A DNA stretch of 64,000 nt, taken from contig PPXM03000002.1 of NCBI GenBank assembly GCA_003707065.3, positions 186,001-250,000 on the forward strand, read 5' to 3'. The stretch comes from Trigonopsis variabilis (Eukaryota; Ascomycota; Trigonopsidomycetes; Trigonopsidales; Trigonopsidaceae). Positions 22,816 through 61,053 of this stretch are shown here, piece after piece (the first letter of the stretch is position 1; each line of letters starts with the position of its first letter). The notes under the pieces were generated by a model. The model was given only the letters and a program-made list of their open reading frames with translations, was not told where the DNA came from and did no database searches. Made by a program: the position numbers and the translations under genes.

Positions 22816-24636
22816 TCACTCAGACTTATTTTCCTTGGCCCAAGACTCGTCACTAAAATCCAGCGAATAGTCTGGAGCATTCACCATATCCGGAGCGCTT
22901 TCTTGGCTCTCATGACCTGAATAACTCGTCATCTGCGACTCCAAGTCCTCTGACAAATTAATGCCCGGCAAATGCTGGCTGGTATCCATGTTGGCTCCAA
23001 CCTGCTGCTGACGCTGATGGATTTCATGAGCTCCAACGTACTCCCACAGGTTCTCCTCCCTATCTTCATAAGGAACGTCCGTAAGAAACGAGTAGTGCCT
23101 GGTGTGTCCCGCCCGACGGTTATGGGCACTGCGCATTGGAGAGACGTAGCCTTGAGAGCGTGCGCTCGCAGGACCAGTTCGTCGGTAAGGGGATGCTCGA
23201 GGCGTACCCAAGGTGCTCGACGTTGTGCTTCTCACTGGACTAATAGAACCAGCTTGAGACACAGAAATGGATCTCGAACTAGGAGGGCGCGAATGCTCCT
23301 CCTGTACGGTCGGAGGAACACGATACTTGACACCGAGACCTTCGAGAAACATATCTTGGCTTGGCTGGACTGTTTCTTCAGACTCTTCGAGGAAGTTGGC
23401 GGCAGCCAGAGCATTTGTCAGGTCCGCACTGGGCGTAGGTTTATGACGAGACAGGTGAGGAGGATGAGGAAGATCATAAGGAGATACCTGGCTAGGTGCC
23501 ATCATGGAGGAGGACGTGGAGTCGGTCGACCACGAGAAACGGGACTCGGAAGATGAATGGGGTATTGAAGGTGACGCTCCTTCCTTTGGAGGTTGGAGAG
23601 AGATTGGGCTGGAGTAAAAAGGGTTATAAGTTTGAGATGACGGTTGGCGAGGGCGGTCCATACCAGAGGGAGGGGCCAGTTTGTGTATATCTGGAGCTAA
23701 GAGAGGGTATAGGAGGTCACTAATATTTTCGCGCCTGGCTAACTCTTTTGCTCTGTCCAGAGTGATCCAGACGCCTTTAAAATGCATGGAGCCGGACTTG
23801 ACGACGTGTCTGATTTTTTCCGATTTCAGGATTCCATCGCGACGGCCTCTGGTCATGCCTGCGACATTGAGTAGTTTGGTTCCATTAACCATATTGTTAT
23901 CTTCTCGGCGAGCAACGCAGATGCCTTTGACGGTGACATGATAACACACGGTCTTTTCATCGTCCCAGTAGGAAGAGCTGAGCTTTCGTGAGCCCGACGG
24001 CTGCATGTCACTTCTCGAAGGACTAGACCGACGAGAGGAAGAGGAAAGGTAGGGCATGCTCCTAGATCGACTATGGCTAGACTGAGTAGAAGGGCCAACA
24101 GAAGGGCCAGCAGAAGGACCAGGAGGCCGAGATCTAGTACCATAAGGCGATCTGAACTGAGAGACCGAGATTGGTTGAGACGGTTTACGCGAAGTTGCCG
24201 GCTGAGGGGGGGGAGGAGGATAGTTCAAGGGGCGACCTTGGGGGGCGGCTTCTGGAGGAGGAAAAACGAATGCAGGTTGCGAATGCGCATGATAAGTATA
24301 AACGGCTCTTGAAGGAGCAGACGATGAAGGAGGCAAAGATGATATCGAAGGAGAAGGCTGCAGGGGCTGATTAGGGGGAGCTTTTTGTTGATCTAAGAAG
24401 GCTCTATTCAGGTTGTAGTCTTGGGGCAAACCGGCCGGAGCCTGGTTTGGAAAAGTATAGACATCATAAGAAGGGTATTGTGATTGAAGGTAATTCACGA
24501 CCGACTGAGAATTTATATAGTCCGCTTGCGGTTGATGAAATTCATTATCGGCTAAAAGAGACGAAGATTCAGGCGACAAGGATGATTGAATTTCAGGGGC
24601 TGGACTTTGCTGATCAGGCATAATGTACAAGTCCAA
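22816..24636 (-). CDS. APSES-domain transcription factor (StuA/Efg1/Phd1 type)
   Basis: This intronless 606-residue protein contains one APSES DNA-binding domain at residues about 223-320: [72 protein letters not shown] and [13 protein letters not shown]. This is the StuA/Efg1/Phd1 branch, which controls morphogenesis, sporulation and filamentation in fungi. It lacks the ankyrin repeats of the Swi4/Mbp1 branch. The flanks are Ser/Pro/Gln-rich and disordered. A second ATG lies five codons in (MPDQQ). It converges with GCN1 (192 bp between stops) and is read from a long, pyrimidine-rich leader region. Confidence 0.93.
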
Positions 24637-26647
24637 GACAAGCAGAGGTTCAAGCAGGACAACCCAAAAAGTATGTCAACAGCTAAACGCAAGATACTTT
24701 TAATCGACAGTACGATATATAAAGAACGAAAGAAAAGGACAATGAATGGACAAGCCTAGACGGTTAGCTCAGCAACGATTGATGTGCCCATTGGGCTCCT
24801 CGCGAGCAGAACCCCAGAGGAGTCGAGGCAAGAAAAAGCCATCAATTGACGGCAACTTACAAAAGACTAAGTCAAAAGGAAAAAGGAACAATGGACCAAG
24901 AGCAAGTAATGCAACAATTAACGACTCAAGCGATCAACTAACAAGACGAAGGGAAAAAATCAAAAGGAAAAGCCAACACGCACAACGGAATCAAGGGACA
25001 AATACGATTGAAATTTCTTTTGAAACCAGACTAAGGAGATCAGATCAAACACTATCAGAGTTAGTCTTGCCCGAGATGGAACGAAAAAGTACCTTTTAGA
25101 ACATGCAGAAAATTCATTCAATAAATAGTCATTGACTAATCTAGTCGAGGTTTTCAGATGGAAAAAGGATCTCAACTCTTCGAGTCGCAAGAATGAAGAT
25201 GAGAGACTGTGGGAGTGAAAAGTCAAGGTGAGAAAGTTTGAGCCCTAAGTTAATCGGGGGGCTCACCTGAGAGGGGATAATGAATCAATAACTTAGAAAC
25301 GCGGTTCTTGTTACACTAGCGTTTTGCCGTCCCCTGACAACCCCGATCTAATTTAAGCTACATGATATAAAAATAGATTCTCGGGCCATTTCTAGTTTTC
25401 TTGACCTTGAGCTTGTTCTAGTCGTCTACAAGTCCCGAATGACTAAATTCCGGTCTCGAGGACAAAGTTTTAATTGATGTTTAATTGTGCTCCTTTTTAA
25501 CTTGACTTTTAGGGGGCCCAAGTTCAATCAATGTAACTCGTAACGGCCCTTTTGCCCTTCTTTGCCTTTCCGGTTTGCTCCTCGGTTAGGTAGCACCTTC
25601 CATAGCCTTTCCCAATAGGGCTTAATTAGTCACGTGAAACGCGCGCGTGAGTGTCTCCGGGGTCAATGACACCGCTTTTGTTGAGGATTTTCTCTTATAG
25701 TTGGGGATTTAAAATGGTGTGACTGATGTTTGAGCTGCTCAAAATGATTTGCAGTTGTGTGAAGTGTAAAAGCTGAGTTTGTTGACAAGTGTTGAATTCC
25801 ATTCCTGGTTAGCTCGACCGGTTGATATATCCAGATAATAAGTATTGGCTTGGATACCATAAATAGTCCCATGAACCGGCGACGAAGCTGCTAGTGACGC
25901 GGCCGTTAAACGGAAACCGCAAAGTTTTCACAGGGACAGAATCATACTACTAGTGATAAGGTAGAGATCCATTCGTAGGTACTCTTAAGATAAGGTCAAA
26001 ACAGATACAAAGAGATATACAAGAAGATTTGAAAAAATTCACTATTCGTCGGATCATCTACTCTGAAATGACATATGAGAATGCCACTCTTGCCAGTCGT
26101 CGGCTTTGCTTCCCATAAATCTGGCGCATGTCAACACCGAGCGAGAATCGTCAATTTTGCCATAAGCGTATGATCCCACATTTAATCGTTCCCTCGTAGA
26201 GCCGTCACGGGTCGGATTTGCAAAGATGACGGATGTTCTCGGGAAAATGCAGGATGACATTTATTTCCATACTTGGAGATACGGCGATGTTTCCCGGGCC
26301 TTACTTTCAAATTTATGTCATTTCCAAAGTCCCCAAATATAAATTCTGACGCCACTCATTGGAACTCGGCTATTAGAAATAGACCACTAATATTTCTTTG
26401 AGCCGGCTGCAAGGACAAGGTCTGCTCTTGAATCTCGACTGTTGAATCAACGTTATGCAATAGTCTCCTTTGCTAGAAATGAACAAATTCCCTTTTGGCT
26501 GTCAAATCCGAGTAGTCTCAAAAAGAGTCTCAATTGCTTTTTGTTCAGTTATCGACACATTAGCGAGCAAGTGAAGGGCGAACATCGCTACACTTGGACG
26601 TTACCATCAACGCTACATCACCACTGTCATCAGTTTCTTCGAGCCCA
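24637..26647. other. 2-kb intergenic region between APSES factor and Aquarius
   Basis: This is the longest non-coding stretch in the window. Its left 500 bp are purine-rich on the plus strand, that is pyrimidine-rich in the sense of the APSES gene, like the long leaders known for StuA-type genes. A 117-codon plus-strand frame at 24746-25099 is a Lys/Arg-rich product of this purine bias and not a convincing gene. A CACGTG site lies at 25631-25636. I see no RNA gene or mobile element. Confidence 0.55.
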
Positions 26648-29600
26648 ATGGTTCAAAGCTCGATAAAAAAGCTCAGTTTGGAATCAATAGCACATAAACA
26701 CTGGCTAGATGCGACTGATTTCAGCCCTGAGATTGTGAATGAACTGTTTAATCGTTCCAGTCGATCGAATTTCAATGACTTTCATTCTTTGGAGTTCCTC
26801 CAATACCTAGAAAGGTAAACACTTGTCGACTTCAATCTGACTCTTCTAGATATTTGTTACCAAATCTAACCGAAAATTCTAATGATACTCACGTCATCTC
26901 TATTGCTTTGTTATGCCTGGCCAAAGCTCACAACGACCTTCCTATATGGACTCACTTTTCTTCTGATCACTTTAGTTTGGTTCTCAATCGGCTCAAGCGG
27001 CTGTCACTATCAGATTCAATCGATTACAATGCCAAAGGTGTAATAATCAGATGGTTTTCCTTGCTCTTTCTCTCTCTCGATTCGCCTATGGTCAGACGAC
27101 ATTGCGGTCCACTTGTGTCTATTGCTATCTGGGCTAACTTGGGCTCTCTTCTAGCCCGAGAAAACATATTCAAACAAGACCCAACGTTAAAGAAAGTTTG
27201 GCGGTCGGCAATCCGAAAGTACGAGAACAGTGACCCGGAATCTAAAGAGGTACTGAAATTCGATCGCTCATGGATTTACAACCTTCTTATTGACCTCTCG
27301 ACTATGTTGCTTTCGGCAGAGACAGACCAGGATCGCCACAGTGCTCAATATACTGAATGGGTCCTGGAACTGCTGATTATCTTGGTCTCTCAGCTACCAC
27401 TGAGGCGTTTCACGAATACATTATTAAAAGACCTAGATATTCTCTCCCTGATTCGGCTGTCTTCAATCTACAACCATCCCTCCAATACGCTTTTGCGTGA
27501 TCTCGTGACATTGCTTGAATTTTACGTGTTCTTCCCCATAGATGATTTTTCAGGTGACAACCTCAGCCCACCTGAGGCATCCGATAGATCCTACCAAGCA
27601 GCTAATGAGTTCCAATTGATCATTTTTCAACATTTCATGGAGAAGCTTAGGCCGCTTGCTCTCTCCAGTCTTGGTGTCATTCAAGACCGCCACGCTCTTT
27701 TACAGGCGCTGCGAGCCCTAGATATTCACGAACTGAAGCATTTATGTAACCTGCTGGGATTGAGAGCTGACATGCCTTGTCCAGATACCGAACATCTAAC
27801 GGAAGAGTATCTTCAAAGCTTAATAGTTGATAAATACTCCAAACGGAAATCGCTGAATGACTTTTATGATGAACTAGATACGTTTCCAACCTTAGAGTCT
27901 CTCTTCAGTCCTCTTTTACAGCAGACCATCGATTATGATGGCAAACGTGCTCTCGCTCTTCCTCGGATCAATCTGCAGTTCTTATCAGTCGATGACTTCT
28001 TGGTGCGTTCGTTTCAGTTATACAGGCTCGAGGCTCTGTACACTATTCGCTCTGACTTATCAGAATTGATTCACAAGACTCGCCCTTTTATCTCCAACGA
28101 GAAGTTGCGGTTCCGTGAAGCTAGTGGGCGCATGTCTTTGATCGAGTCTTTAGCCCTTCTTGAGGTCGCGCCTCCAAATGTCGGTGAGACGCTTCCGAGT
28201 CATGTGAGAGTCGAAGTCAAAGTTGACTTGCGCCAAGCTTCGCCGACTACCCTGAATCAATGGGAATCTCTGCGCCCAAGAGACGTTGTTTTTTTGCTTG
28301 ATCTCCGTCCGGGTGATAAAGAATATCATGGCCCTGCTGAAGCCAAGAAACTGGGATTGAACAATATTGTAGCTGGAGAAGTTATCCAGGTTCTCGACGA
28401 AGCAGGACGTCCTCTCCATCAAGCGCGATTGCTTGCAGAAAAGAACGAAGAAGAAAAGTTAAAAATGGGACGTCGAAGGAGGTTTCACATTGACCTCGAT
28501 CCAAGGTCTTTTGATCCCTCGGTCAATCGAGATTCTTTATACTCTTCCTTGAATGCTATATTCCGGCGAAGACAGCGTGAAAATAATTTCAAGCCTATTC
28601 TTGATAATATCAAGTCCTTAGGGCAGACTGGTGCTTACTTGCCTTCTTGGTTTACTGATCTTTTCCTTGGCTTTGGCAATTTTTACGGCCAACGACAGTC
28701 AGCCAAGGTAGATGTGTTCGACACTTTCGTTGATAATGACCAAATTAAAGCGATCTTTCCGCAAGCCGTTTTCGAGTCCGATATCAGCGGTCCTCCTTAT
28801 GTGTTGGAAGAAAGTGACTCTGAAGTCAAAGTATCAACCTATAAGCTTCTTCACAAGAGTCCATATCCTCAGGAGTTGCCCAAATTCAATAGCATAAAAT
28901 TCACAGATGCTCAGATACGTGCTATACTCAGCGGGACTCGGCCTGGATTGACGGTAATCCATGGACCTCCAGGAACCGGCAAGAGCGACGTGTGTGCTCA
29001 GATCGTCAGTAACATATATCACGGTTCACCGGATGAAAGGACTTTAGTTATAGCGCATTCAAATTTTGCTCTAAACAAACTTTTCGAGAAGATCGCCGGT
29101 CTGGACATCTCTGCTCGCCATCTTGTTCGATTGGGAGCTGGCGAGGAGCTGTTAGAGACTGAAGCCTCATTTTCACATGCTGGTCGGATCGAGAGTCTCT
29201 TGTCTCTTCGCAATTCGCTTCTGGTCCAAGTCACGCGATTAGCTAAATCTCTAAACATAATTGGAGCTCACGGGGACTCCTGTGAGACCGCCTCTTACTT
29301 CAAATCGGTCTTCATTGACCCGTTAATATCTGCATTTACTTCACGGTCGCTCGAGAGCGCTCAGGATCTTCGTTCTTTATTTCCCTTCACTAGCTTCTTC
29401 TCCGACGCGCCTGATTTCTTTTCGAGTGACGATATCAATGTTCTGAAGGATCAAGCAGATGCCGGTATTGCCCATATTGAGGACATTTTCCATCAGTTAA
29501 GGGATATTAGGCCATTCGAAGTCATAAGTTCTGCTAAAGAGAAGGCGAACTGGCTATTGATCAAGGAGGCGAGAATCATTGCGATGACTTCTACCCATGC

Positions 29601-30624
29601 TGCCATTCGACGGGATGAACTGGTCCAAATGGGCTTTCACTACGATTCCGTGGTGATCGAGGAAGCTGCGCAACTCACTGAACTTGAAGTGGTTATTCCT
29701 TTGACCCTTCAGAACCGCGAAAACTGTGAAAAATACCTCAAACGAGCTGTTCTAATTGGTGATCACCTACAGAATGCGCCAATAATTCAGAATATAGCTC
29801 TCAAACAATTTGGTGGTCTTGACCAATCTACACTTGCCAGGTTCATTCGCTTGGGAAGCCCAACTCTTTTCCTCGATGCGCAAGGTCGGTCTCGCCCTAG
29901 TATTGTTGATATCTGGAGATGGCGCTACAACGATCTTAAGGATCTTCAGACAGCCGTGGCGCGTGAAGAGTTTGCCCTAGCCAATGCTGGATTCGCGCAC
30001 GAGGCGCAGTTCATCGACGTTGGCGACTATGAAGGCCAAGGAGAAAGCTGCCCAAGTCCTCATTTTTGGCAGAATCTTGGAGAAGCCGAATACGCTGTTG
30101 CTGTCTATCAGTATATGAGGCTTCTAGGCTACCCCAGAGAAAAGATCACCATCCTGACTTCTTATGCTGGTCAACGAGTGCTCGTGGATGAGGTGCTCAA
30201 GCACCGTTGTGCTGGGGTTAAATTCCTCGGAATGCCGGGAGCAGTATCGACTATTGATATGTACCAAGGCCAAGAAAACGACTATGTCATTGTTTCACTG
30301 GTTCGAACCTCTCGAGTGGGCTATCTTCGAGACATCCGTCGGATGACGGTCGCTCTTTCCCGAGCACGATTGGGATTATATGTCCTCGGCCGAAAGAAGC
30401 TCTTCACGTCTTGTCCTGAAATAAGGGGATTGTTCAATGGTCCCTGGATTGAAAAAGATCAGCTGGTTCTGACTCATGGAGAGATGTGCGGCAAAGTCAG
30501 TCGACCATTCGACCAGCCTGCATCGGAAACGTTCGAGATGGAAGGAGTGGAACATCTTGGACAGTATGTCTATGAGATGATTGAACAGCGCAAGTCCGTG
30601 AATAAAAAAGGCATGATCAGATAG
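26648..30624 (+). CDS. Intron-binding spliceosomal helicase Aquarius (Cwf11)
   Basis: Aquarius/Cwf11 is an SF1 RNA helicase that binds the intron upstream of the branch site and joins the catalytic spliceosome. It is absent from budding yeast. Exon 1 (26648-26814) starts MVQSSIKKLSLESIAHKHWL. Exon 2 (26850-30624) holds the ARM-like N-terminal half and then the helicase core: Walker A HGPPGTGKSDV, motif II VVIEEAAQLTELE (the DEAQ-like form of Aquarius), GDHLQNAP, QGRSRPSI, TIDMYQGQENDYVIVSLVRT and MTVALSRARLGLYVLG. The total is about 1,313 residues, somewhat shorter than the human protein (about 1,485). An in-frame non-ATG extension lies upstream, so a further 5' exon is possible. The intron ends CTGACTCTTCTAG. 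Confidence 0.95.
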
Positions 30625-30636
30625 ATGGGTGAAAAT

Positions 30637-30933
30637 GTATATACATCAAATAATACGAGTACGGTAGGGAAGGTAATGTAGCAAATCCATTGTCCATGTT
30701 ACTCAAGAGTCTATCCAAAAGTTGTCCTAGCAATCTATTATCCATGTTATTCTGTCAAAAAGTCTAAGCAATAGTCACTATTCAAGCGACCTTACTCCAT
30801 ACTGATGTCCTTATAAAAAACAAATGTTAGCATCTCTTACTCCTAGTACTATTGGACAGACAATTATAATGGATTTGCTACATTACCCTGCTACATCACC
30901 TTTCCTTCCGTACTAGTGCTATTAATGAATATA
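30637..30933. repeat. Imperfect long inverted repeat, MITE-like, between convergent genes
   Basis: The left arm (about 30637-30695) and right arm (about 30853-30933) are inverted copies. The cores share AGTACGG, then AGG, AAGGT and ATGTAGCAAATCCATT. The arm match extends outward to GTATAT. The right arm contains an internal duplication, so the 11-mer TAATGTAGCAA and its relatives occur three times. The ~160-bp centre holds two diverged direct copies of a TCCATGTTA(C/T)T-containing phrase. There is no coding frame. The form resembles a non-autonomous DNA transposon (MITE), but I could not define a target-site duplication. It fills almost the whole 329-bp space between the two stop codons. Confidence 0.6.
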
Positions 30934-30953: not shown

Positions 30954-32771
30954 TTAACCCCGTAACTGAGAAGAGAAGTGGGAATGCGAAAGCTGGCGCG
31001 CAAGCCTGGGAGCGCGACCCAGCGTGCGCACCAGACCGCGGTCATAGCATCGCATCAAGCGACGAAGATCATCAATAACAATGGGACAGATGATCTCGGC
31101 AAGGAATTCTGAGACTTCTTCCGCCAATTCCTTCATTACCTGTGAATGAGCCACCATGGCAGGATGGGGATTCTGCGAGATGGAATCGACCGCCAGCTGA
31201 TGGGCAAACTCTACCGCGGCCGCCGCCTCAAACAAGGAGACGATTGCAGTCTCGTAGTTACCATAAGGTTCATTGGCGTACCAGACATCAGACTCATCTT
31301 CAGATAGGGGATCGAAAGGCGAGGGGCTATTGATGGTCGTGTAGCTTAGTTGTTGGTTGAGAATATGCGTCAATGCGGGGCGAATAGTGTTAGCTGTATC
31401 AGAAGCAGTTTGCAGCCCGGTAATAATATTGGATTGAAGTATGTAGCTAGCCAGGTCAACTGGACATTTCGAAGCCTTGGTCTCCTTCGAGTGTGCCACG
31501 GGACACTGTGCTTCCGTAGTTTCACTATCAGAAGAAGCAGGTATACATTTGGCTGCAACCTCGGTGGCATGAGAGACAGGACATTTTCCTTCGGTTTCGG
31601 CGGCGTGAGCGACTGGGCATTTCCCTTCTGCGCTCTCGGCGTGAGAGACAGGGCACTTTTTAATTTCGCTATTCGGGTGTTCAACACCAGTTTCTCCTTC
31701 GGTTGGGGCAGAGTGAGCAACAGGGCATCTTGAATCGGCAGTCGAAGCATGAGCAACGGGACATTTGGGCTCATTGACCTGGGAAGCTGGAGAATCAGAA
31801 AGTCGTCGAGCTTCAGTGACTTCAATTTCTTCTTTAGGGGCAGTGAGGATATCAAAAAGTGTTATGAAATCCCGAGCCAGCAGTCTGAAAAGACTAGCCT
31901 TCTCGGAGACGGCAGACAGACAAGGTCTTTCGACGGCCCAGACGTCATGGGGATAGTATTCGGCCTGAGTAAGGTAGCCGCCTCTAGGACACTTGATGAT
32001 AGACATGATGTTATTCATTTGCCAAAAGTTGATGGCGACCCATTGACGAGGAGGAGCAGAGGGCATGCAGATTGATCCTGTCGACGAAGAGTTATCACGG
32101 AAAGAGTGAGAAGAGTAAGAACTATTAGGACTGACATACTCTAACACCTGTCCTTGAGAAGAAGGACACGGGGAAGGAGTACGGTCGCTCGAAGAAGGTG
32201 TAAAAGGTGAATCAGAAGACTTTGGGGTTCTCGGAGAATTGGGGGTCTTTGGAGACGGGAACGAGGTAGGAGAAGATGTTTGAGAAGGAATTGAAGAAAC
32301 CGCCAAGGTCGAAGAAGATAGCTGAGTAGGAACTGAAGAAGCCACTAAGGTCGGAGTAGAAACGATGGGTCGTTTAGTTGCTGCTCGAGGTGTCTTCTGC
32401 TCAGAAGACTGCTGAAATTGGGCATTGGCAGCGACTTCTTCTTTTCGGAAAAGCTCCAAAAAAGGACATTTCCGTTCTTCGTCCCATTCGTTAAACGGCT
32501 TGATGATTCGCTTCTTCTTCTTGGTAGGCAGGTTATGGTGAGAAATCACAGGATGAAGAGGAGGCTTCATCATTGACAGCCTTGAAAGGCGTTTGGAATC
32601 GGTCACAGTCAATTGTCCGGACTTGACATCCAAGTTGTCCAGAGCGCTAGTCAATTGATCGACGGCCATGATATCTATAGAAGCTTGAAGACGATGTTTC
32701 CGAAGTTGAGCAGAAACTGAAGAAGGACGGCGTACTATCAAAGTCTGATGGGACCCACAGCCCTCAGCCAT
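30954..32771 (-). CDS. Novel Cys-Pro/His repeat protein (CPV[A/S]H array)
   Basis: I do not recognise this 605-residue intronless protein. Residues about 336-438 form a tandem array with a 12-residue period. Cys at 337, 349, 373, 385, 397 and 423 each begin CPVAH or CPVSH, usually after Lys. Position 409 is a degenerate unit (KCIPAS) and 436 is CPVDL. Further Cys-Pro dipeptides occur at 102 (KCPFLELF), 202, 261 (KCPRGG) and 562. Residues 242-310 look like a folded segment (QWVAINFWQMNNIMSIIKC, then YYPHDVWAVERP), and residues 505-600 are helical. The rest is Ser/Thr/Pro-rich. Cys-Pro is the core of heme-regulatory motifs, so heme or metal binding is possible but unproven. A TATA box five bases before this ATG suggests that Met35 (32669) may be the real start. 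Confidence 0.8.
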   Translation of the reverse strand: MAEGCGSHQTLIVRRPSSVSAQLRKHRLQASIDIMAVDQLTSALDNLDVKSGQLTVTDSKRLSRLSMMKPPLHPVISHHNLPTKKKKRIIKPFNEWDEERKCPFLELFRKEEVAANAQFQQSSEQKTPRAATKRPIVSTPTLVASSVPTQLSSSTLAVSSIPSQTSSPTSFPSPKTPNSPRTPKSSDSPFTPSSSDRTPSPCPSSQGQVLEYVSPNSSYSSHSFRDNSSSTGSICMPSAPPRQWVAINFWQMNNIMSIIKCPRGGYLTQAEYYPHDVWAVERPCLSAVSEKASLFRLLARDFITLFDILTAPKEEIEVTEARRLSDSPASQVNEPKCPVAHASTADSRCPVAHSAPTEGETGVEHPNSEIKKCPVSHAESAEGKCPVAHAAETEGKCPVSHATEVAAKCIPASSDSETTEAQCPVAHSKETKASKCPVDLASYILQSNIITGLQTASDTANTIRPALTHILNQQLSYTTINSPSPFDPLSEDESDVWYANEPYGNYETAIVSLFEAAAAVEFAHQLAVDSISQNPHPAMVAHSQVMKELAEEVSEFLAEIICPIVIDDLRRLMRCYDRGLVRTLGRAPRLARQLSHSHFSSQLRG

Positions 32772-36172: not shown

Positions 36173-38337
36173 TCATGGTGGTAACCCTGTTAACCCTGTC
36201 TCAAGTGCCATTCGTAAACGCTCCAACAACTCATCGTGAGCGTTTTCAGCGGGAGGATCGCGCAGAAACTTAGCAAAGGGCTTGAGTACACAAGCAACAT
36301 TTCTCCAGCAAGGCTGCACATAGGATGCCAAAATGAGATCCGGCCTTCGCATTTCTTCAAAGAAGCACTGAGGTGTCAGAAGGCTGTTAATGAGAAGATC
36401 TCTGTTCAATTCTTGACTCTCACTGGAACCGTTCATTTTCTTCATAAGATTTTCATTAGGATGCCACTCAAATGCTTGCTCGTTCTCATTGCGCTGGTAG
36501 CAGGTAAAAGAAAAAACGAGTACCCAGAAAAAAGACTCCAAGTCGCTCAAAAAGGCAGACTCCTCCCCTCTCCATACCGATCTGGCCATAAAAAAGGTCG
36601 TCCCGATGCGCTTTTCCGGGACCCGAGTAGACTGACTGAGAAGAATTGCATGATCCAAGTCTATTAAAATTCCCCTTTCCCTGTAAGGATCATACATTAC
36701 ATTTCCGAAACTTATATCTCGGTGGAGAATACCGCGATCGATGAGTTCTTTATGCCCTTATTATTACAATGAAAGAAAATATATCCTTACCTTTGATGGC
36801 ATCCAATATGCTGCTCACGACGAGAAAAGGGTCCCCAAGATCGGTCAACTTTTTATAAACGGGCAAAATAAAGATTTCCCGGAAGAAAATTCGATGTCCT
36901 GGATTCCGAACATCAAGAGGAATGGCCAGAAGTTTTTTTCGAAGTCGCCAAGTATCCCCAGCGTTCGCCAATCCACCGACCAAGCGAGGCAAGTGATGCG
37001 CGTCTTGAACCATTTCTAAAAGGGCTAATTCTGACGGACGGTCTATTCGAACCCAATTTTCTTTGACCACGAAGCGCCTCTCAGCTAGATCCTGGTATGT
37101 CCGGACTATGCCAGTCGGTCCTAGAAGCATCGCTCTAGTAGTGATGTTACCTAGTAAGGAATATCTAACTCCATCTACAAGAAGGGTATTCACAGGAGAC
37201 ATCTTTCCGAGGCTTTCAAGTGGAACGGTCAGAAACGCCAAAAACATCCCAGCCACTCTTCCTATGTCGCGAAGCTCAAAGGTCCGAAAAGCATAGCCCC
37301 CAGATCGATCAAAGTACCAAGGATGGACGACCTCTCCAACTATGCCGACGCCAAGGACAAAGCGGCGACCAGGGTCCTCGAGAAATATGTTGCACGCTCG
37401 TTCGACCAGCTGCAGGTAAACCTTCTTCTCGGTATTATTTCCCTTTTTTAACTCAATCGGGACTAGAATCCGACTAAAGTCCGTGACAGGACCACTCAGA
37501 CAGACCCCCATATCCACCTCTCTGACCGCTGACATCACAGAAAGCTTGATGGAGCTTTCTACCCATCTTGGAAGATCTTGTCCTAAGTTGAGATCTGAGA
37601 CTACATCCTTCAGGAACTCGATGACATCTGGCTCCTTTGAAGATCGTGGCTTTCGCGATTTTTCTTGCATCTGGCCACTGGGTATGCCAGCTTCGAAAAA
37701 CTCATCTATACCCAAGTCCAACTGGAACCTGGCAGCTATTACTCCTGATTCAACAAGGCTGAATTTGCTCTCAGCAATAGTAATAGGGGTAGTGTGCCAG
37801 CCGTTCTCCGTTTTGTTTAAAATATCTCTTGAGCACGAGCGAATCATTCGCTGCTCTGGTATTAAGGGAGACACATCGCGATCAAACTCAATATACTGGC
37901 CAATATAGGAGGCTATTAAACACCTCGTCAGATTGTTCGGCAGGGGGAGGGGGTAATGCTCGAAGGAGATATTAATATCTAAATCGCGGTTCACTTTTTG
38001 TCAGCCTTGTTTCAGAAGAGTGTCTCTTCATTCATATATGCAAAGGGTATCGCATGACTTACACTCTATGATATCCTCTCGTTCATATGAATAGGTCAAA
38101 TAGCAATATAGATAAATGATATTAATGGTAAAACTTTCGCAGGGACCTTCTATAGGGCCCCTGATAGTGGCTCCTGATTGTCTCAAGAAAGGTATTGAGT
38201 CGGGAAAACGTAATAGAAGGTTTGAAATAAGCTGATATCTATCTGATCCTTTATCATTAGACACTGTATGCGCCTCACTTGCCAGGCAGGATCTCCTCAG
38301 GGAAAAGGTTAATAAGGTATTGGTCAAGTTTCTTCAT
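36173..38337 (-). CDS. Fungal-type protein kinase, FunK1 family
   Basis: FunK1 proteins are a fungal kinase-like family, expanded in some lineages, with mostly unknown roles. The catalytic parts are in place: the VVKENW lysine region, the catalytic loop GILHRDISFGNVM, the DFG-equivalent ILIDLDHAI and the family segment GTTFFMARS. The upstream half (IELKKGNNTEKKVYLQLVER, GVGIVGEVVHPWYFDRSG) is the usual FunK1 N-terminal region. Exons are roughly 38337 to about 38283, then to about 38077, then about 37990-36791, then 36756-36173. The first intron appears to begin GC (GCAAGT..AAG) and is tentative. The HRD and Asp residues suggest an active enzyme. The flanks show local duplication and decay. 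Confidence 0.85.
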
Positions 38338-39468: not shown

Positions 39469-40333
39469 CTAGTACTGGTCTTCGCTGTATCGAGACTCCC
39501 GTCGAGGCTCGCGAGGTTCTCTGTCGTAGCGATCGTAGGTGTCTCTTCGGTCGTCGCGGTATGGCCGATCGTCGCCCCTGTCGCCATATCGATCTCCCCG
39601 TCGGTCATCGTAGCGATCCCGGCGGTCGTCATATCGATCTCTTCGATCGTCGTAGCGATCCCTGCGATCGTATCCACCTCGTCGATCATCGTAACGGCTT
39701 CGAGGGGGTGGACGGTCGTAATCGTATCGAGATCGACGATAGTCCCGGTCATAGTCCCGATCGTAGTCCCGGTACCGCGGAGGGTCCCGTGGGTATCTCC
39801 CTCCCCGACGGTCCTCCCGTTTAGGGGGTCCAAAGTATTTACCTGGCGTGGGAGTTCTGGGCCGATTTCTTCGTGCAAACTCAACGCCCAAGGTCTTACC
39901 TTCAAGAACCTCACCATTGAGTCCCGCAATAGCAGCAGAGGCTGCTTCCCTGGTGACAAACTTGACAAATCCGAATCCCCGAGGATCCTTGGTATGAGGA
40001 TCCAACATAATCTGCACCTTTTCCACCTCTCCATATTTACTGAACGTATCCTCTAAGCCCTGCTCAGAGACTGCATTGGAGATCCCAGTGACAAACAGAT
40101 TAGTACCCTCGTTTTCAGCATTAGTAGAGCTCCTTTCACAAGTTAGTTTAAAGATTGCTTCTCTCTTCTCTTACGTGTATGATTGGTCTCGGTTGTCATC
40201 CCGAACGTCATCTGAACCACGAACGGGCGAGCGCGATCGTTCGCGCGTTGGGCGTTCTGGGGAAAGAGAGCGTTCTACTGTTAGAAAAGAAATCCTAATT
40301 TCAGTCTTTACCTTGATATTCTCGATCAGACAT
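39469..40333 (-). CDS. Tra2-like SR-type RNA-binding protein
   Basis: This protein has one RRM flanked by RS-like regions, the layout of Transformer-2-type splicing regulators. Exon 1 begins at 40333 with MSDREYQ. Exon 2 carries the RS-like stretch SPERPTRERSRSPVRGS. Exon 3 encodes the RRM, with RNP2 NLFVTGIS and RNP1 RGFGFVKF, then GVEFARRNRPRTPTPGKYFG. The C-terminus is an Arg/Asp/Tyr-rich tail with tandem DRYDDRR units (about 39560-39720). Both introns have CTAAC branch sites and consistent phases. A role in alternative or weak-site splicing is inferred from the family. Confidence 0.9.
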
Positions 40334-42719: not shown

Positions 42720-44812
42720 ATGCCAGTTTGCGATGCAGATAAAGATTTCATCAACTGGGACCGTAAGTTCTTTCTGTTTGGTAGGAAAGGCTGACAGTCT
42801 AGATATAGCTGCGTTTGCAGAGGCATTAGGAAAAGAACAAGACCGAGACAAATTAGAATTCATAGTGAGTAAGAATGATTGGATGCCGGTGAAAGAACGG
42901 GTCAAAGGTCGACAGAGACGGAATCGGTTTATAAAATCCAAGTATGGGACAAATAAAGGTTAGTTTAGAGCGCATTGAATGAGAAGGCATGTGTTAATTG
43001 TCAGGTTTTGGCTATACACTTCTGCGATGGCCTGCATTTTTCATGGTTTGCTGGTGGATTTTGTTCCTGTCGTTACTTTATTTTCTCGTTCGTGTTTCTG
43101 TGGCTTTGTACGAGCATTTTTTCTTTTGGACTGGGGCTAGATATCGTTTACGAGAGAAATTACGGCATGCAAGCACGTATGACGAGTGGCTTGAAGATGC
43201 AAGAAAGCTGGATAATTATCTGGACCTAAGTGACTGGAAGACCGATCCAGAGTCTCCATATTATGATTATAATACGATTACTAGAGTCACCAGAGATTTC
43301 AGGAATATGAGAGAACAAAACGATATCGAAGGATTGGTAGGACTGCTTGAGGCAGTAGTTCAGAATAACTTTGGAGGTAGCGAGGGAATCATTCTATATA
43401 GCCAGTGCTATTCTGGCACCAAAGATTTAATAGGGGAGTTCAAGATTGAAATATGTCTGGCGATCGAAAAAGTCATGCAATCACCAAGGTTGTCCTTGGA
43501 TGATCGTCGATATTTGGTCCATTTGATGGGCCGTAAACTAGGTCGAAGTGCGCTCTGTTTGAGTGGAGGCGCTACCTTTGCATATTATCATTTTGGAGTC
43601 TTGAAAGCTTTGCTCGATCAAGACCTTTTACCTAGCGTAATTGCCGGTACTTCTGGCGGTGCGCTCGTTGCCGCTTTTGCTTGCTGTCATACCAATGAGG
43701 AACTTGCCCAATCTCTGGTTCCTGAACTGGCCGACAAGATCAGCGCTTGTCATGAATCATTTTCTCAATGGTTTAGGCGATGGTTGAGGACAGGTGCCCG
43801 ATTCGATAGTATCGACTGGGCTGAACGGTGTTGCTGGTTCACACGAGGTAGTATGACCTTCAAGGAGGCCTACGAACGGACTGGCCGAGTCCTCAATATT
43901 TCTACTGTCCCTGCTGACCCACATTCTCCCGTCATTTTATGTAACTACATCACTGCACCAAACGCGGTTATTTGGAGCACTCTTTTGGCATCAGCCGCTG
44001 TGCCTGGCATCTTGAATCCAGTCGTCCTTATGATGAAGACAAAAACTGGGGAAATTGTTCCTTTCAACTTTGGAAACAAGTGGAAAGACGGGAGCCTCCG
44101 CACTGACATCCCACTACGGGCCCTTAATACCTATTTCAATGTCAATTTCTCCATCGTCTCGCAAGTTAACCCTCATGTTTCTCTTTTTTTCTTCAGTCCC
44201 AGAGGTACAGCTGGGCGCCCGGTGGCTCATAGGAAGGCTGGCGGATGGAGAGGAGGATTCGTGATTAGTGCGCTTGAAAAGTACATAAAACTGGATATAT
44301 CGAAATGGCTCTATGTGGCCCGAGATTTGGACCTTTCTCCTCATTTCCTGGGTCAGGACTGGTCTTCAGTGTTTTTACAGAACTTCAGGGGAAGCATTAC
44401 TATCTGGCCCAAGCCAAACTTAGCTGATTTTTATTATATCTTGTCTGACCCCACTCGAGAGCGCCTGAAGCGCATGATCGCCGTGGGCCAATCAGTGACC
44501 TTCCCCAAAATCGTCTTCATTAAAGATCGAATGATAGTTGAGCGGGCTATTGAGAAGGCATATGTTTCATTGTCGAGAGAAATGGGCCTAGAGGATGATT
44601 ATGTGGGTGCGTTCGAAGACCTCTACACAGGATCTCTGCGACTAGAAATAGGAAGTGAGACCGAACTCAGTGATGCGTCTCGAAATAGAGACTTGATTGC
44701 CCATCAACGGCAAGGCATCCAAGGCGAGTTGTTACGGCGAGCGGTTGAGAACGATCTCCATGGTCATCAGCGGTCAGACTCATCAACCATTGAATCGAAT
44801 GAGTCGGACTGA
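42720..44812 (+). CDS. Patatin-like triacylglycerol lipase (TGL3/4/5 family)
   Basis: These lipases hydrolyse stored triacylglycerol on lipid droplets. Exon 1 (42720-42762) starts MPVCDADKDFINWD, exon 2 is 42803-42958 and exon 3 is 43005-44812, giving about 668 residues. An N-terminal hydrophobic segment (FFMVCWWILFLSLLYFLVRV) is followed by the DUF3336 region (ASTYDEWLEDARKLDNYL). The patatin domain has the oxyanion loop SGGATFAYYHFGV, nucleophile Ser283 in AGTSGGALVAAF and the catalytic Asp in KWKDGSLRTDIPLRAL near residue 430. The Ser-Asp dyad is therefore complete. Introns are 40 and 46 nt. The start fits the family, whose members begin with D-F-I-N just before the intron. Confidence 0.94.
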
Positions 44813-56212: not shown

Positions 56213-59078
56213 ATGGCCATTTCAGTTCGACCGGAGAACCTTCTCAAGGTACGCTATCTTTATGGTTTCCGTTACTAATAATTAGCGGGCTGAAGAATTA
56301 ATTACTGTAGGCCAATCTGCTGCGGCCTTGGAACTCCTTCATGAAGTGATATGTTCCAAGCGGGCTAGAAATGTGTCTTTGCCGTCAATGGAAGCAATCA
56401 TGCTTCGTTTTGTCGAGCTTAGTGTTGATCTAAGACGAGGAAAGATCGCTAAGGAAGGTCTTTATCAATATAAGAACTCTGTTCAAAACACATCGGTTGC
56501 TTCGATTGAGACGGTGCTAAGAAAATTCATCGATTTGAGTGAAGCCAAGGTCGCCGAGGCTCAAGAAGCTGCAGAAAAACAGAATCTGGATGCCATTGAT
56601 GACCTTGAAGCTATCGAAACTCCAGAAGATATCTTGCTCTCGACTGTCTCCGCCGAGCAGACCCGTGATCGAACCGATCGTGCGGTGGTCACTCCCTGGC
56701 TTAAATTCTTATGGGAAACATATCGAACTGTCCTTGATATCCTTCGAAACAACGCGCGATTGGAGACTATGTATCAAAACGTATGTTCGCAGGCTTTTCA
56801 GTTCTGCCTGAAATACCAGCGAAAGACTGAGTTCCGTCGATTGTGTGAACTGTTACGAAACCATCTTCAGTCGGCCGCTAAATATGCTACTCAACAACAT
56901 GCTATTAATCTAAATGACCCTGATACGCTCCAGCGACACCTTGATAGCCGGTTCACCCAGTTGTCAGTGGCTGTCGAGTTGGAATTATGGCAAGAAGCTT
57001 TCCGATCAGTTGAGGATGTCCACACGCTCTTGTCCTTGAGTAAAAGACCGGCGAAGCCCCAGATGATGGCCAACTACTATGAAAAGTTGGTCAAAATTTT
57101 CTTGGTCAGCGGCAATTATCTTTTCCATGCGGCTGCTTGGAATCGTCTCTACCAATTGCTCCGCCAGGCTAAATCCACTCCTGATGCTGAACTCAATAAA
57201 GCTGCTTCTTCCGTCGTTCTATCTGCCTTGGCTATTCCTAGCTCCGGTTCAGGCTCTAAATCTCCCTCGACCAGTGCTGCTCCCTCTCTTTTCTCGGTAG
57301 ATGAAAACAAGCACAAAAATTCTCGATTGACTGTTCTCTTGGGTCTTACGAATACTCCAACAAGGCAAGCTTTACTTCAAGATGCTCTCAAGAAAGGCCT
57401 ACTAAAAAGATGCCACCCATATATTCAACAGCTTTATACCATTCTCGAAGATGATTTTCATCCTCTTTCTATCGCCTCTCGCGTCGGTCCTATCATCACC
57501 CAATTGGCTTCTGAACCTGATCTTGGCAAATATCTAAGACCCCTCCATCAAGTCCTTCTTACACGTCTCTTGCAGCAGCTTAGCCAAGTCTACGACTCGG
57601 TGGAACTTGACTTTGTCGTCCGTCTTGCATCATTCCCCAGTCCTCTTGAAACCTCTTCGACCCAATTAGAACGGTTCATCGTCGCCTCTTGTCGTCGCGG
57701 AGACCTCCGAGTCGAAATTGATCATGCCAACCGTCTTTTGACTTTTGTCACGGATGTGTTCTCCCCATCTTCGTATTCCTCGCCTGCCCTCCAACCTTCT
57801 TCTTCTGATATCGTTTCCCATCGTCTTTCAGCAATTGGTCGTGCCTTATACGAGGCACTCTCTAAGGTTGATCCTGAATTTATAAGAGAGCGGGAACTTG
57901 CTCATGTTGCTGTCCTCGATACTGCCTTGTCTAGCGGCGAAGCTGAAGCCGAGTCCATCTCGCAACACGCAGCTATCATTGCTCGAAGAGAAGAGTACAA
58001 GCAGGAAGAAAAGGCTAGGCGTATTGAACAGGAGGCTCGAAGCCGAGCGCAGCGTGCTCAGGAAGAGTTGGCTGCAGAACAGAAACGTCAAGCCGACGAA
58101 GCTGCTGCTCGTGCTCGAGAGCGCTTGGAGAAGGAGAAGGAAGCAGTAATGAACATGGAGAAGCAGAAGCTTTTGGACGAAATCATGGCTCGAGGTCCAT
58201 TAAAGCTGGATGTTAGTGATATATCGTCGCTCGACGCTGGGAAACTTCGCGCTCTCCAACTCGAGCAACTTGCTAGGGAGAAGGATGAACGGGCGGAAGT
58301 TTTCAGGATTGTTGGCAAACGCATGGATCACTTGGAGCGAGCATATCGAGAAGAGGAAGCACCTTTGCTACGAGATGACTACGAGAAGCAAAAGGAGCGC
58401 GACCGCAAGTTACAAGAAACTCGATATACCAATTTGGTCGAGGCTGCCAAGCGACAATACAAGGAACGTCTTGCTCTCAAGAAGCGGTTTGAGAGAATGA
58501 TTCCAGACTTTGAAAAGTACAAGAAGCGCATTGAACAAGAACAGACTGAGCATCTAACGCGCTTGAGAGAAGAAGCGCAGGCCAAACTAGCTGCAGCCAA
58601 GGCGGCTCGTATCCAAGAGGTCAATGCTGCTGCGCTCAAAGAGAAAGAGGAAGAAGATGCCCGCGCTGCTGCTGAACAGGAGACGCTCGAGAGAGAAGCC
58701 GCCGAAACGGCTGCCCGAGAAGCGCGCGAAGCTCAGCGACATGAAGAGTTGGCCAAATTCCGACGAGAAAAAGAGGAAGATCTTCGCAAGGCCGAGAAGA
58801 TGCTGGCTCTCCAACGGGCTCGAGAGGCAGCTGTGGAAGAAAAAGAACGGAGAGAGCGAGAAGAAAGGATGGCTGGCTTTGGCAGACCAAATGGCAAGCC
58901 CCAGTCCTACGTTCCGCCCAGTCATCGGGTCCGTGGCGATCGAGACAGTCGAGCTGGCTCGTCAGCTTCGTCAGGCACTTCTTCACCCGCTCCTCAGCAG
59001 CAACAACTTCCCCCTCCCAAGCCATCCGATGCGACTCCTTCGCCTGGCAAATATGTTCCCAGACGTCGCCGCGGTTAA
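56213..59078 (+). CDS. TIF32: Translation initiation factor eIF3 subunit a (TIF32/RPG1)
   Basis: eIF3a is the largest scaffold subunit of eIF3, which recruits the 43S complex to mRNA. Exon 1 (56213-56248) encodes MAISVRPENLLK. A 37-nt intron follows. Exon 2 (56286-59078) continues RAEELITVGQSAAALELLHE. The N-terminal half contains the TPR-like and PCI regions (RTEFRRLCELLRNHL, SVAVELELWQEAFRSVEDVH, PKPQMMANYYEKL-like segment). The C-terminal 350 residues are a long charged coiled coil. The tail is basic and Pro/Gln/Ser-rich, ending PGKYVPRRRRG. The total is about 942 residues, close to the yeast protein. Confidence 0.96.
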
Positions 59079-59856
59079 AAACATGTGTACGAGATGTTAG
59101 ATGAATGAATATTAGTCAAGATTACGCTCAGCGTGCAGTAGTTTCTTGCGCTGACATTAGCCATGATTCTGGCGCCACAAAAGGGTGCGTGATGAGCTGT
59201 CCCTGAAAGTGAACCACGCAAGGCGGGTTAGCACCTTGGCGCGTCATATTTGTGCGTACGGCTACCGAGGCTCGTTTACGGCAAGAGGCGCAAGTGATTT
59301 ATCTGACCCTGTCGCTTTATTAAGGCGTGTGTATTTAATATAGAGCCCATCACGGGTCTGGAATGGAAGGCTATGCAGCTTGCTAGGTGACCTTTTGGTT
59401 TAGGGCGAGCAAGGTCACATGAGGGCTGGGACCGCGGGCCTGGCTTGTTTGGGTAGACGGCAACGACGGCCAATCAAGGCCGGGTCAAAAAAGCGGTCTC
59501 ACGTGACGAACAGGTGATGAGGGTGCGAGGAAAATTTTCAAACCAAATACGCAGACAAACTTGAAGCGGACCAAAGGACAAGAAAGAGAAAGATTTCACA
59601 AGGTTTCTAACTTTTTTGTTGAAGGTTGTGGGGCCCTAGGCCATACGGGTAAGTCACACAAGAATGAGACGAGAGGCGGGATGAAGAGGGTGGTGGAATT
59701 CATATAGATAATGAAACAAACATTAATTGGAGGAGATGGGGAGACTTTTTTTGACGCAAGCTGACTGAGCCATAGACGCAGACGCTTTTTAAGACGGATA
59801 TAGGCATTGAGCCATGATGTGCTAAAGAGAAAGAGCGGTCGAGGATCGAGAAAAGA
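59079..59856. other. Intergenic region with an inverted TGACCT pair and an E-box
   Basis: GTGACCTT (59387-59394) is inverted as AAGGTCAC (59411-59418) with a 16-bp spacer. CACGTG lies at 59500-59505. Both could be factor sites for the downstream acidic-repeat gene, but single short matches are weak. No coding frame is supported. Confidence 0.4.
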
Positions 59857-61053
59857 ATGATTTTTAGTGCAGGAAAACAAGAGGAGAAGGATACGATGAG
59901 TGACTTTTCCAAGCGCGTGGTTGGGGGAGAAAAGAACTTAGGACGGTGTTCTTTGTTGACGCAGATGTTGTCTGATAATTCCAGTCAGTGCTCTACTGGT
60001 CCTAGTTCTCGGGCTTCGAGTCCTCAAGATCATTATGCTAATCTACAATCAACTTCACGAGCGCCTAGCCCAGAGAGCAAGGTGGGAACCTCTCATATGA
60101 CACCTAGCCCAGGTCGACCTGTTGGGATCTTGCAAAGAACTCCTAGTCCTGGTCGCCCGACTGGGATCTTGCAAAGGACACCGAGTCCAGGGACCAGGGC
60201 TGGGATCTTACAAAAGTCTAGCACTACCACCACTACTACAACTACTACTAATAATAATAATGAGCGCGAAGGATGTTCTACTTTGAAGTTTATGTGCAAT
60301 GACCGTGACTCGGAGAGCCATGGTCCGAAACTGCGTTGCTCAAAGAGTCCTTTGCCTAATAAGGATAAAGTATTAAGCGCTGTCGATGACGATGAAGATG
60401 ACGATGAAGATGACGATGAAGATGACGATGAAGATGACGATGAAGACGATGATGACGACGAGGATGACGAGGAACAAGACGACGACCAAGATGACGACGA
60501 TGTATCAGGCCTCGATGATGACGACGAGGATGATGAAGATGATTCCGATCTCGACGAGGACGAAGTGGAAGAGGCTGGCTTCGACCCCGCTTCAACGTCG
60601 AGTCGCTATGCATCAAGAAGAGTCGCTCGATCTCTACCTCGGATCATCAAGTATAAACTCTCCGTCAACGATGAGTTGAATCAAAATGACTTTGTTTGCG
60701 GGACGTTGGACGAAGAACAAGGGAGCGACTCTCGCGGTAGACCGATCGCCGCAAATGAAGGCGTCTCTGGGTCAGAGAATGACAGTGCTTCTGGCTCTAG
60801 GAGTCTCTTAAATGGTGTCTCTGCTCAACAGATTGCCCATCACCAGGCATTTAATGAGTACAATGGTCTCAAATCCTTTTCTTATCATACCCAACGCACT
60901 CTAAGATTTGGAGGTCCCGATGTCACTCCTTTCCATACTCGACGGTGTCCTCCTAGCCGACGAGGATCTCCTGCTCCTCCTTTATGCCGACGAGACAAGC
61001 GCATCCGTAAAGGAATCGATATCAATCCTCCTCAAGTTCATCACGCCTCTTGA
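59857..61053 (+). CDS. Acidic low-complexity protein with SPSPGRPxGILQ repeats
   Basis: I do not recognise this protein of up to 398 residues; Met14 (59896, MSDFSKRVVGG) is a likely start. Near residues 77-120 there are three to four copies of a TPSPGRPxGILQR unit of about 14 residues. A Thr run and an Asn run follow (about 60220-60262). Residues about 178-225 are an almost pure Asp/Glu tract encoded by a tandem GATGAAGATGAC-like 12-mer (about 60390-60480). The C-terminal part is ordinary sequence (RSLPRIIKYKLSVNDELNQ, QRTLRFGGPDVTPFHTRRCP) and may be the conserved portion. A nuclear regulatory role is only a guess. The minus-strand His/Arg frame here is a shadow of the repeat. Confidence 0.72.
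   Translation: MIFSAGKQEEKDTMSDFSKRVVGGEKNLGRCSLLTQMLSDNSSQCSTGPSSRASSPQDHYANLQSTSRAPSPESKVGTSHMTPSPGRPVGILQRTPSPGRPTGILQRTPSPGTRAGILQKSSTTTTTTTTTNNNNEREGCSTLKFMCNDRDSESHGPKLRCSKSPLPNKDKVLSAVDDDEDDDEDDDEDDDEDDDEDDDDDEDDEEQDDDQDDDDVSGLDDDDEDDEDDSDLDEDEVEEAGFDPASTSSRYASRRVARSLPRIIKYKLSVNDELNQNDFVCGTLDEEQGSDSRGRPIAANEGVSGSENDSASGSRSLLNGVSAQQIAHHQAFNEYNGLKSFSYHTQRTLRFGGPDVTPFHTRRCPPSRRGSPAPPLCRRDKRIRKGIDINPPQVHHAS
60390..60545. repeat. Tandem 12-bp coding microsatellite (Asp/Glu tract)
   Basis: A GATGAAGATGAC-type 12-mer is repeated in near-perfect tandem for at least six units and then decays into mixed GAT/GAC/GAG codons. The unit is a multiple of three, so length changes would keep frame. Confidence 0.85.

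What the first reader, a model, noticed from the sequence alone, without database searches (positions are those of the whole stretch)
31450..31775. Tandem CPV(A/S)H array with a 12-residue period in an unrecognised protein
Six CPVAH or CPVSH units plus two degenerate units (KCIPAS, CPVDL) lie at Cys 337, 349, 373, 385, 397, 409, 423 and 436. Spacing is 12 residues, or a simple multiple of it, until the last two. Additional Cys-Pro pairs sit at 102, 202, 261 and 562. Cys-Pro is the core of heme-regulatory motifs, and a Cys plus His four residues later could coordinate heme or a metal. CPVxH-like strings occur singly near the ends of some heme enzymes; I know of no fungal protein with an array. 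The flanking segment at residues 242-310 looks like a folded domain. A multivalent heme or metal sensor or store is the attractive reading, but it is inference.
Basis: partly seen in the sequence, partly recalled or inferred. Interest (0 to 1): 0.75.

Follow-up and report, generated by a model that had tools for sequence, protein, structure and literature searches.

The report
Fungal protein with heme-motif array
A fungal protein of no known family carries a row of short Cys-Pro-Val-x-His motifs, mostly twelve residues apart, like the heme-sensing motifs of the yeast regulator Hap1; it may sense or buffer heme, but no binding has been tested.

Summary
A 605-residue ORF (30954-32771, minus strand) holds six intact (K/R/Q)CPV(A/S)H units and two degenerate ones where stated. 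One more degenerate unit (TGVEH, residue 361) fills the apparent gap, so seven units (337-409) follow one 12-residue register. These six are the only CP(V/I)xH strings in all six frames of the window. A recent neutral minisatellite is unlikely: among the intact units the C, P, V and H codons differ about as much as saturation would give, yet the residues are the same. But this protein is not a recognisable Hap1: no zinc cluster was found, and no Pfam family or credible PDB relative. Best reading: an unclassified protein with an old, selected array of Hap1-type heme-regulatory motifs that binds several ferric hemes through Cys and so controls or buffers heme. Heme binding is inference, and no orthologue could be compared. 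New variant of a known kind.

The parts
30954..32771 (-). 605-residue ORF (P0001), single open frame, ATG at 32771, stop ending at 30954
   Evidence: coding score highest of six frames; no Pfam family at E up to 10
31449..31766 (-). array of nine units (six intact CPVxH, three degenerate), residues 336-441
31749..31763 (-). unit 1 CPVAH, Cys337, preceded by K
31713..31727 (-). unit 2 CPVAH, Cys349, preceded by R
31641..31655 (-). unit 4 CPVSH, Cys373, preceded by K
31605..31619 (-). unit 5 CPVAH, Cys385, preceded by K
31569..31583 (-). unit 6 CPVSH, Cys397, preceded by K
31533..31547 (-). unit 7, degenerate CIPAS, Cys409, preceded by K
31491..31505 (-). unit 8 CPVAH, Cys423, preceded by Q; 14 residues after unit 7
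31452..31466 (-). unit 9, degenerate CPVDL, Cys436, preceded by K; has the Val-Asp of the Hap1 motif but Leu for His
32454..32468 (-). outlying Cys-Pro, CPFLE, Cys102
32154..32168 (-). outlying Cys-Pro, CPSSQ, Cys202
31977..31991 (-). outlying Cys-Pro, CPRGG, Cys261
31074..31088 (-). outlying Cys-Pro, CPIVI, Cys562, inside a modelled C-terminal helix
32505..32522 (-). basic run KKKKRI (residues 84-89), possible nuclear localisation signal (inference, no predictor run)
   Evidence: sequence
32127..32273 (-). Ser/Thr-Pro-rich stretch, residues 167-215 (10 of the protein's 15 S/T-P sites)
30972..31454 (-). C-terminal region after the array, residues 440-600, modelled as long helices with low to moderate confidence
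   Evidence: no Foldseek match at E up to 0.001

Best explanation
A heme-responsive protein of no described family. A flexible linker (residues 336-441) between a Ser/Thr-Pro-rich N-terminal half and a helical C-terminal region carries an array of Hap1-type heme-regulatory motifs. Each intact unit exposes one Cys, held by the following Pro, that can take the iron of ferric heme; the following His probably raises affinity or links to a neighbouring unit rather than being the second ligand within the same unit. With six intact units the linker can fill step by step as labile heme rises, and this loading changes the protein's partners, stability or location, as heme does for Hap1 and Bach1. Shown here: the motif array, its register, the sameness of C, P, V and H despite saturated codons, and the lack of a Pfam domain. 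Inferred: heme binding, the regulatory outcome, flexibility of the linker, and the nuclear location suggested by the KKKKR run.
For: Six intact units, five of them (K/R)CPV(A/S)H, against the published Hap1 motif (K/R)CP(V/L)DH or K/RCPV/I. C, P, V, H codons of the six intact units, all 15 pairs: 39 synonymous differences over 40 synonymous sites, 0 over 140 non-synonymous sites; in the spacers pN is 0.50. Codon mismatch at these positions is 0.65 in the window, expected 0.56 at saturation from the codon usage of seven window ORFs, and 0.00 to 0.31 in 27 other in-frame CPVxH arrays (from 26 of 49 fetched loci). All six CP(V/I)xH strings in six frames of the window are these. The array has no aromatic residue, the six spacers have 1 hydrophobic residue of 36, and the model shows coil there, at pLDDT below 50. 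Cys-based peptides bind ferric heme at 0.4 to 6.4 micromolar Kd, and extra His or Tyr generally raises affinity. In Hap1, six motifs near the DNA-binding domain and a seventh near the activation domain give graded heme control.
Against: No heme binding is shown. A CP among alanines does not bind heme; [quoted passage not shown] the six clustered Hap1 motifs have a small effect on activity; one of two Hhy1 CP-type motifs is dispensable; citrate synthase of a white-rot fungus has one HRM but spectra that point to His ligation. Net charge (K/R minus D/E) of the 9-mers around the six intact units is 0 in four, +1 in one and -1 in one, and of the whole array -5, while positive charge favours heme binding. 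The Asp of the Hap1 motif is Ala or Ser in all six. Intact units were picked because they match, so pN of 0 is partly circular; three of nine units have lost the motif. No orthologue could be examined.
Confidence: 0.5

Rival explanations
1. Heme buffer or carrier rather than switch: the array holds several hemes reversibly to keep labile heme low or hand it on, without a change in activity of the protein itself.
For: Multivalent and evenly spaced; no recognised catalytic or DNA-binding domain. A fungal precedent proposed as a heme-buffering protein is S. pombe Hhy1, whose CPC motif carries part of its hemin affinity while its first CP motif is dispensable.
Against: A Ser/Thr-Pro-rich stretch and a basic run, if functional, suggest regulation rather than storage; neutral to negative charge of the array.
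Confidence: 0.2
2. The units are short linear motifs for a protein partner or a modification of Cys, with no role for heme.
For: Repeated short motifs in disordered linkers are often docking sites (general knowledge). CP motifs do not prove heme binding.
Against: The constant residues are exactly C, P, V and H of the Hap1 motif.
Confidence: 0.17
3. Metal-binding array (zinc, copper or other) through Cys and His of each unit.
For: One Cys and one His, with three residues between them, in each intact unit.
Against: No second Cys per unit; Pro after Cys and the preceding K/R fit the heme motif.
Confidence: 0.08
4. Neutral minisatellite expansion.
For: In-frame repeat; three of nine units are degenerate. 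The same gene has a 42-base tandem duplication elsewhere (32281-32360).
Against: Tandem Repeats Finder reports no array at the CPVxH units at score 40; 32 of 36 unit pairs share at most 22 of 36 bases, and the closest shares 29; codons at saturation with C, P, V, H the same.
Confidence: 0.04
5. A diverged holocytochrome c synthase (cytochrome c heme lyase), which also carries CP motifs.
For: CP motifs occur in that enzyme.
Against: No Pfam family at E up to 10 for the whole protein or three segments.
Confidence: 0.01

Closest known systems
Hap1 (Saccharomyces cerevisiae; C. glabrata Hap1A and Hap1B; C. albicans Hap1/Zcf20)
   Same: Fungal, with several motifs of the type (K/R)CP(V/L)DH: seven, five and six in S. 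cerevisiae Hap1, Hap1A and Hap1B; two K/RCPV/I in C. albicans Hap1.
   Different: No Zn2Cys6-like pattern in six frames of the window; Ala/Ser for Asp; strict 12-residue register over seven units. By recall only, Hap1's first six motifs are further apart and less even.
Bach1 (mammals)
   Same: Six HRMs; heme acts on location and DNA binding.
   Different: Bach1 has BTB and bZIP domains; no Pfam domain here.
Hhy1 (Schizosaccharomyces pombe)
   Same: Fungal heme-binding protein with one CP and one CPC motif in its C-terminal region.
   Different: No array in the passages read; not compared by sequence here.
Gis1 (Saccharomyces cerevisiae)
   Same: Fungal heme-regulated protein with two CP motifs.
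   Different: JmjC demethylase with zinc fingers; no such domain here.
Holocytochrome c synthase (yeast)
   Same: CP motifs in a heme-handling fungal protein.
   Different: No match to any Pfam family here; its CP motifs are reported as not needed for cytochrome c production in E. coli.

Membership tests
Proteins with Hap1-type heme-regulatory motifs (functional class) | several copies of K/R-C-P-V/I or K/R-C-P-V/L-D-H | tested here: met
   five K/R-CPV-(A/S)-H intact, one QCPVAH, and KCPVDL; the short form K/RCPV is met by five intact units plus unit 9; the full form with Asp-His is met by none
Proteins with Hap1-type heme-regulatory motifs (functional class) | motif exposed on the surface | tested here: inconclusive
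   coil in the model and hydrophilic spacers, but pLDDT below 50
Proteins with Hap1-type heme-regulatory motifs (functional class) | reversible heme binding through the motif Cys with a functional effect | not testable with these tools
   needs spectra and mutants
Hap1 orthologues | Zn2Cys6 DNA-binding domain | tested here: not met
   no Pfam hit at E up to 10; no Zn2Cys6-like pattern in six frames of the window; a cluster split by an intron could escape the pattern
Hap1 orthologues | several heme-responsive motifs | tested here: met
   Asp replaced
Hap1 orthologues | repression modules and activation domain | not tested
   no full-length Hap1 sequence was at hand
Holocytochrome c synthase | cytochrome c heme lyase domain | tested here: not met
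   no Pfam family for the whole protein or three segments

The most novel reading that the evidence does not exclude
A second, independent type of fungal heme sensor: not a DNA-binding factor like Hap1 but a protein in which six Hap1-type motifs, five of them in one 12-residue register, form a multivalent heme ruler that loads several hemes in a graded way and acts through its helical C-terminal region.
Probability: 0.25. Interest if true: 0.7.

Novelty: new variant of a known kind. Interest (0 to 1): 0.42.

Why it matters
In the papers whose passages I read, the fungal proteins with five or more such motifs are Hap1 and its C. glabrata homologues. If this protein binds heme, it would show a Hap1-type motif array outside the zinc-cluster factors, at a fixed period, and give a clean system to ask how number and spacing of heme motifs set sensitivity; in Hap1 the motifs carry unequal weight.

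Tried and rejected
Relatives: tblastn of the protein in the plasmid collection (E up to 1) and the search for related loci in genome contigs and viral contigs found none (in 22 and 23, 39 and 8 stretches matched a peptide pattern and none was confirmed). These hold prokaryote genomes, plasmids and viral contigs, so absence there says little for a fungal gene. Metagenome contigs was not scanned, its cap being 0. No whole genome is held for the window.

Other CPVxH arrays: a DNA pattern of three units with gaps of 9-39 bases gave 43 genome-contig loci (first unit with TGC only; a TGT start was not scanned there), and 1 plus 5 viral-contig loci (TGC and TGT starts). In 26 of these 49 loci at least three units share one stop-free frame (27 rows, two from L038); the other 23 loci were dropped from the codon comparison. 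Of the 27 rows, 20 have identical codons at C, P, V and H and 7 have mismatch 0.15 to 0.31. I used them as a contrast, not as relatives; they come from prokaryote and viral contigs and are mostly short frames.

PDB: the only hit of the whole protein at E up to 10 is lysostaphin, E 1.9e-5; rejected as compositional, since it aligns to the array's repeats with Ala where Cys should be. Segments 237-311 and 441-605 gave nothing at E up to 10, and Pfam nothing for 80-140, 242-312 and 441-605. Structure models from the single sequence had mean pLDDT 41 (whole protein) and 62 (residues 436-600), and Foldseek of the second gave no match at E up to 0.001: nothing concluded.

Papers: the motif strings gave seven papers, none on a fungal heme protein by title and start of abstract; two word combinations gave none; some searches gave 13, 21, 474 and 21 papers, of which 12, 20, 15 and 10 were listed and seen as listings. 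Of seven papers I read passages found by term; of PMC6356037 I read passages and sections 7 and 8. No paper was read whole.

Full report
Observation. The minus-strand ORF 30954-32771 codes for 605 residues from an ATG that is the third codon after an in-frame stop. Six units fit CPVxH (337, 349, 373, 385, 397, 423); 409 is CIPAS and 436 is CPVDL. In the 24-residue step between 349 and 373 there is a further unit in register, TGVEH at 361, with Val and His but no Cys-Pro. So the array has nine units, six intact, of which the first seven stand in one 12-residue register and the last two follow after 14 and 13. Shuffles do not give this. In six frames of the whole window no other CP(V/I)xH occurs.

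Real gene. The frame scores 0.20 bits per codon against a nucleotide background, the five other frames -0.07 to 0.10, and seven ORFs of the window, also the training set, 0.15 to 0.34. No zinc-cluster pattern was seen in the flanking DNA or elsewhere in the window. The neighbourhood is fungal: the Pfam fungal protein kinase family PF17667 at 36173-38000, an aquarius-like helicase at 26779-30624, a KilA-N protein at 22816-24675 and a DUF3336-patatin protein at 42998-44812; the KilA-N protein also matches Mbp1 chains. The species is not known to me. eIF3a at 56286-59078 scores higher with 1350-1382-residue eIF3a chains (up to 520.6 bits) than with a 964-residue chain (413.9 bits); I take these, by recall, to be mammalian and yeast, which says little on placement.

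Age and selection. If the array were a recent expansion, its units would be near-identical in DNA. They are not: Tandem Repeats Finder lists nothing at the units at score 40. The 36 pairs of units share 10 to 29 of 36 bases, 32 of them at most 22. Over the C, P, V and H codons of the six intact units, the 15 pairs give 39 synonymous differences over 40 synonymous sites and 0 over 140 non-synonymous sites. In the spacers pN is 0.50 and pS 0.72. At C, P, V and H 0.65 of codon comparisons differ, where codons drawn from the window's usage would give 0.56. As a contrast, 27 other in-frame CPVxH arrays (26 of 49 loci fetched by pattern from prokaryote and viral contigs) have 0.00 to 0.31. The caveat is that intact units were chosen for matching, so the zero is partly circular, and three of nine units did lose the motif. 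Still, six units with the same four residues at saturated synonymous change ask for selection or for independent origin of each unit, and both suggest function.

What it works like. The motif is that of Hap1: (K/R)CP(V/L)DH in one paper (passage read, PMC11580460), K/RCPV/I in another (passages read, PMC9491583). Five of the six intact units have K or R before Cys. The difference is Ala or Ser in place of Asp. [quoted passage not shown] Peptide work (section 7 read, PMC6356037) says Cys-based peptides bind heme at 0.4 to 6.4 micromolar Kd; that CP peptides are penta-coordinated, mainly with a Soret band near 370 nm, whether or not another ligand is present; that added His or Tyr generally raises affinity; that a CP among alanines does not bind; and that negative charge hinders. 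Hap1 HRM7 is reported at 362 nm, and a fungal citrate synthase with one HRM shows spectra that point to His instead (passages read, PMC10771590). Here the 9-mers have net charge 0 (four), +1 (one) and -1 (one), and the array as a whole -5, so binding is plausible but not assured. Gis1 (passages read, PMC5758875) and Hhy1 (passages read, PMC13135908) show that fungal proteins can have CP motifs of which only some matter for heme.

What it is not. It is not a recognisable Hap1 orthologue: no zinc cluster and no Pfam family. It is not a recognisable cytochrome c heme lyase (CP motifs of that enzyme from passages of PMC3884852). The only PDB sequence hit is compositional. The C-terminal region is predicted as long helices with low to moderate confidence, without a fold match.

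Verdict. An old, probably selected array of Hap1-type heme-regulatory motifs in an otherwise unclassified fungal protein. I give a heme-responsive regulator 0.5 and a heme buffer 0.2. The kind is known. I saw no report of this architecture in my searches (open-licence papers only, lists capped), which is weak evidence of absence.

Noticed in passing
window 30672-30887: Perfect 20-base inverted repeat with 176 bases between the arms, with a 13-base tandem at the right end (30876-30900); looks like a small MITE-like element between the two convergent genes. No other copy of the arm in the window with up to 3 mismatches.
   Followed up: partly
window 32281-32360: 42-base tandem duplication (1.9 copies, 81 per cent matches) inside the same gene, in its Ser/Pro-rich part and outside the CPVxH array.
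   Followed up: no
window 36173-38000 (-): Fungal kinase family PF17667 matched in two overlapping open frames of different phase, so either an intron or a frameshift.
   Followed up: no
window 60385-60497: 12-base tandem repeat (GATGACGATGAA) coding for a long acidic Asp/Glu run in the ORF 59818-61053.
   Followed up: no
window 39580-39693: 42-base and 21-base tandem repeats in the Arg/Asp/Tyr-rich tail of what looks by eye like an RNA-binding protein (ORF 39469-40170, minus; no family search made).
   Followed up: no
L038 (Candidatus Parabeggiatoa sp. HSG14), 845-1039: Bacterial tandem array read as AVKCPVEHLQ with a 10-residue period in a 981-residue frame that holds masked stretches; codons at C, P, V and H are identical. 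K stands before CPVxH; R does so in L016, L017, L028 and L045.
   Followed up: partly
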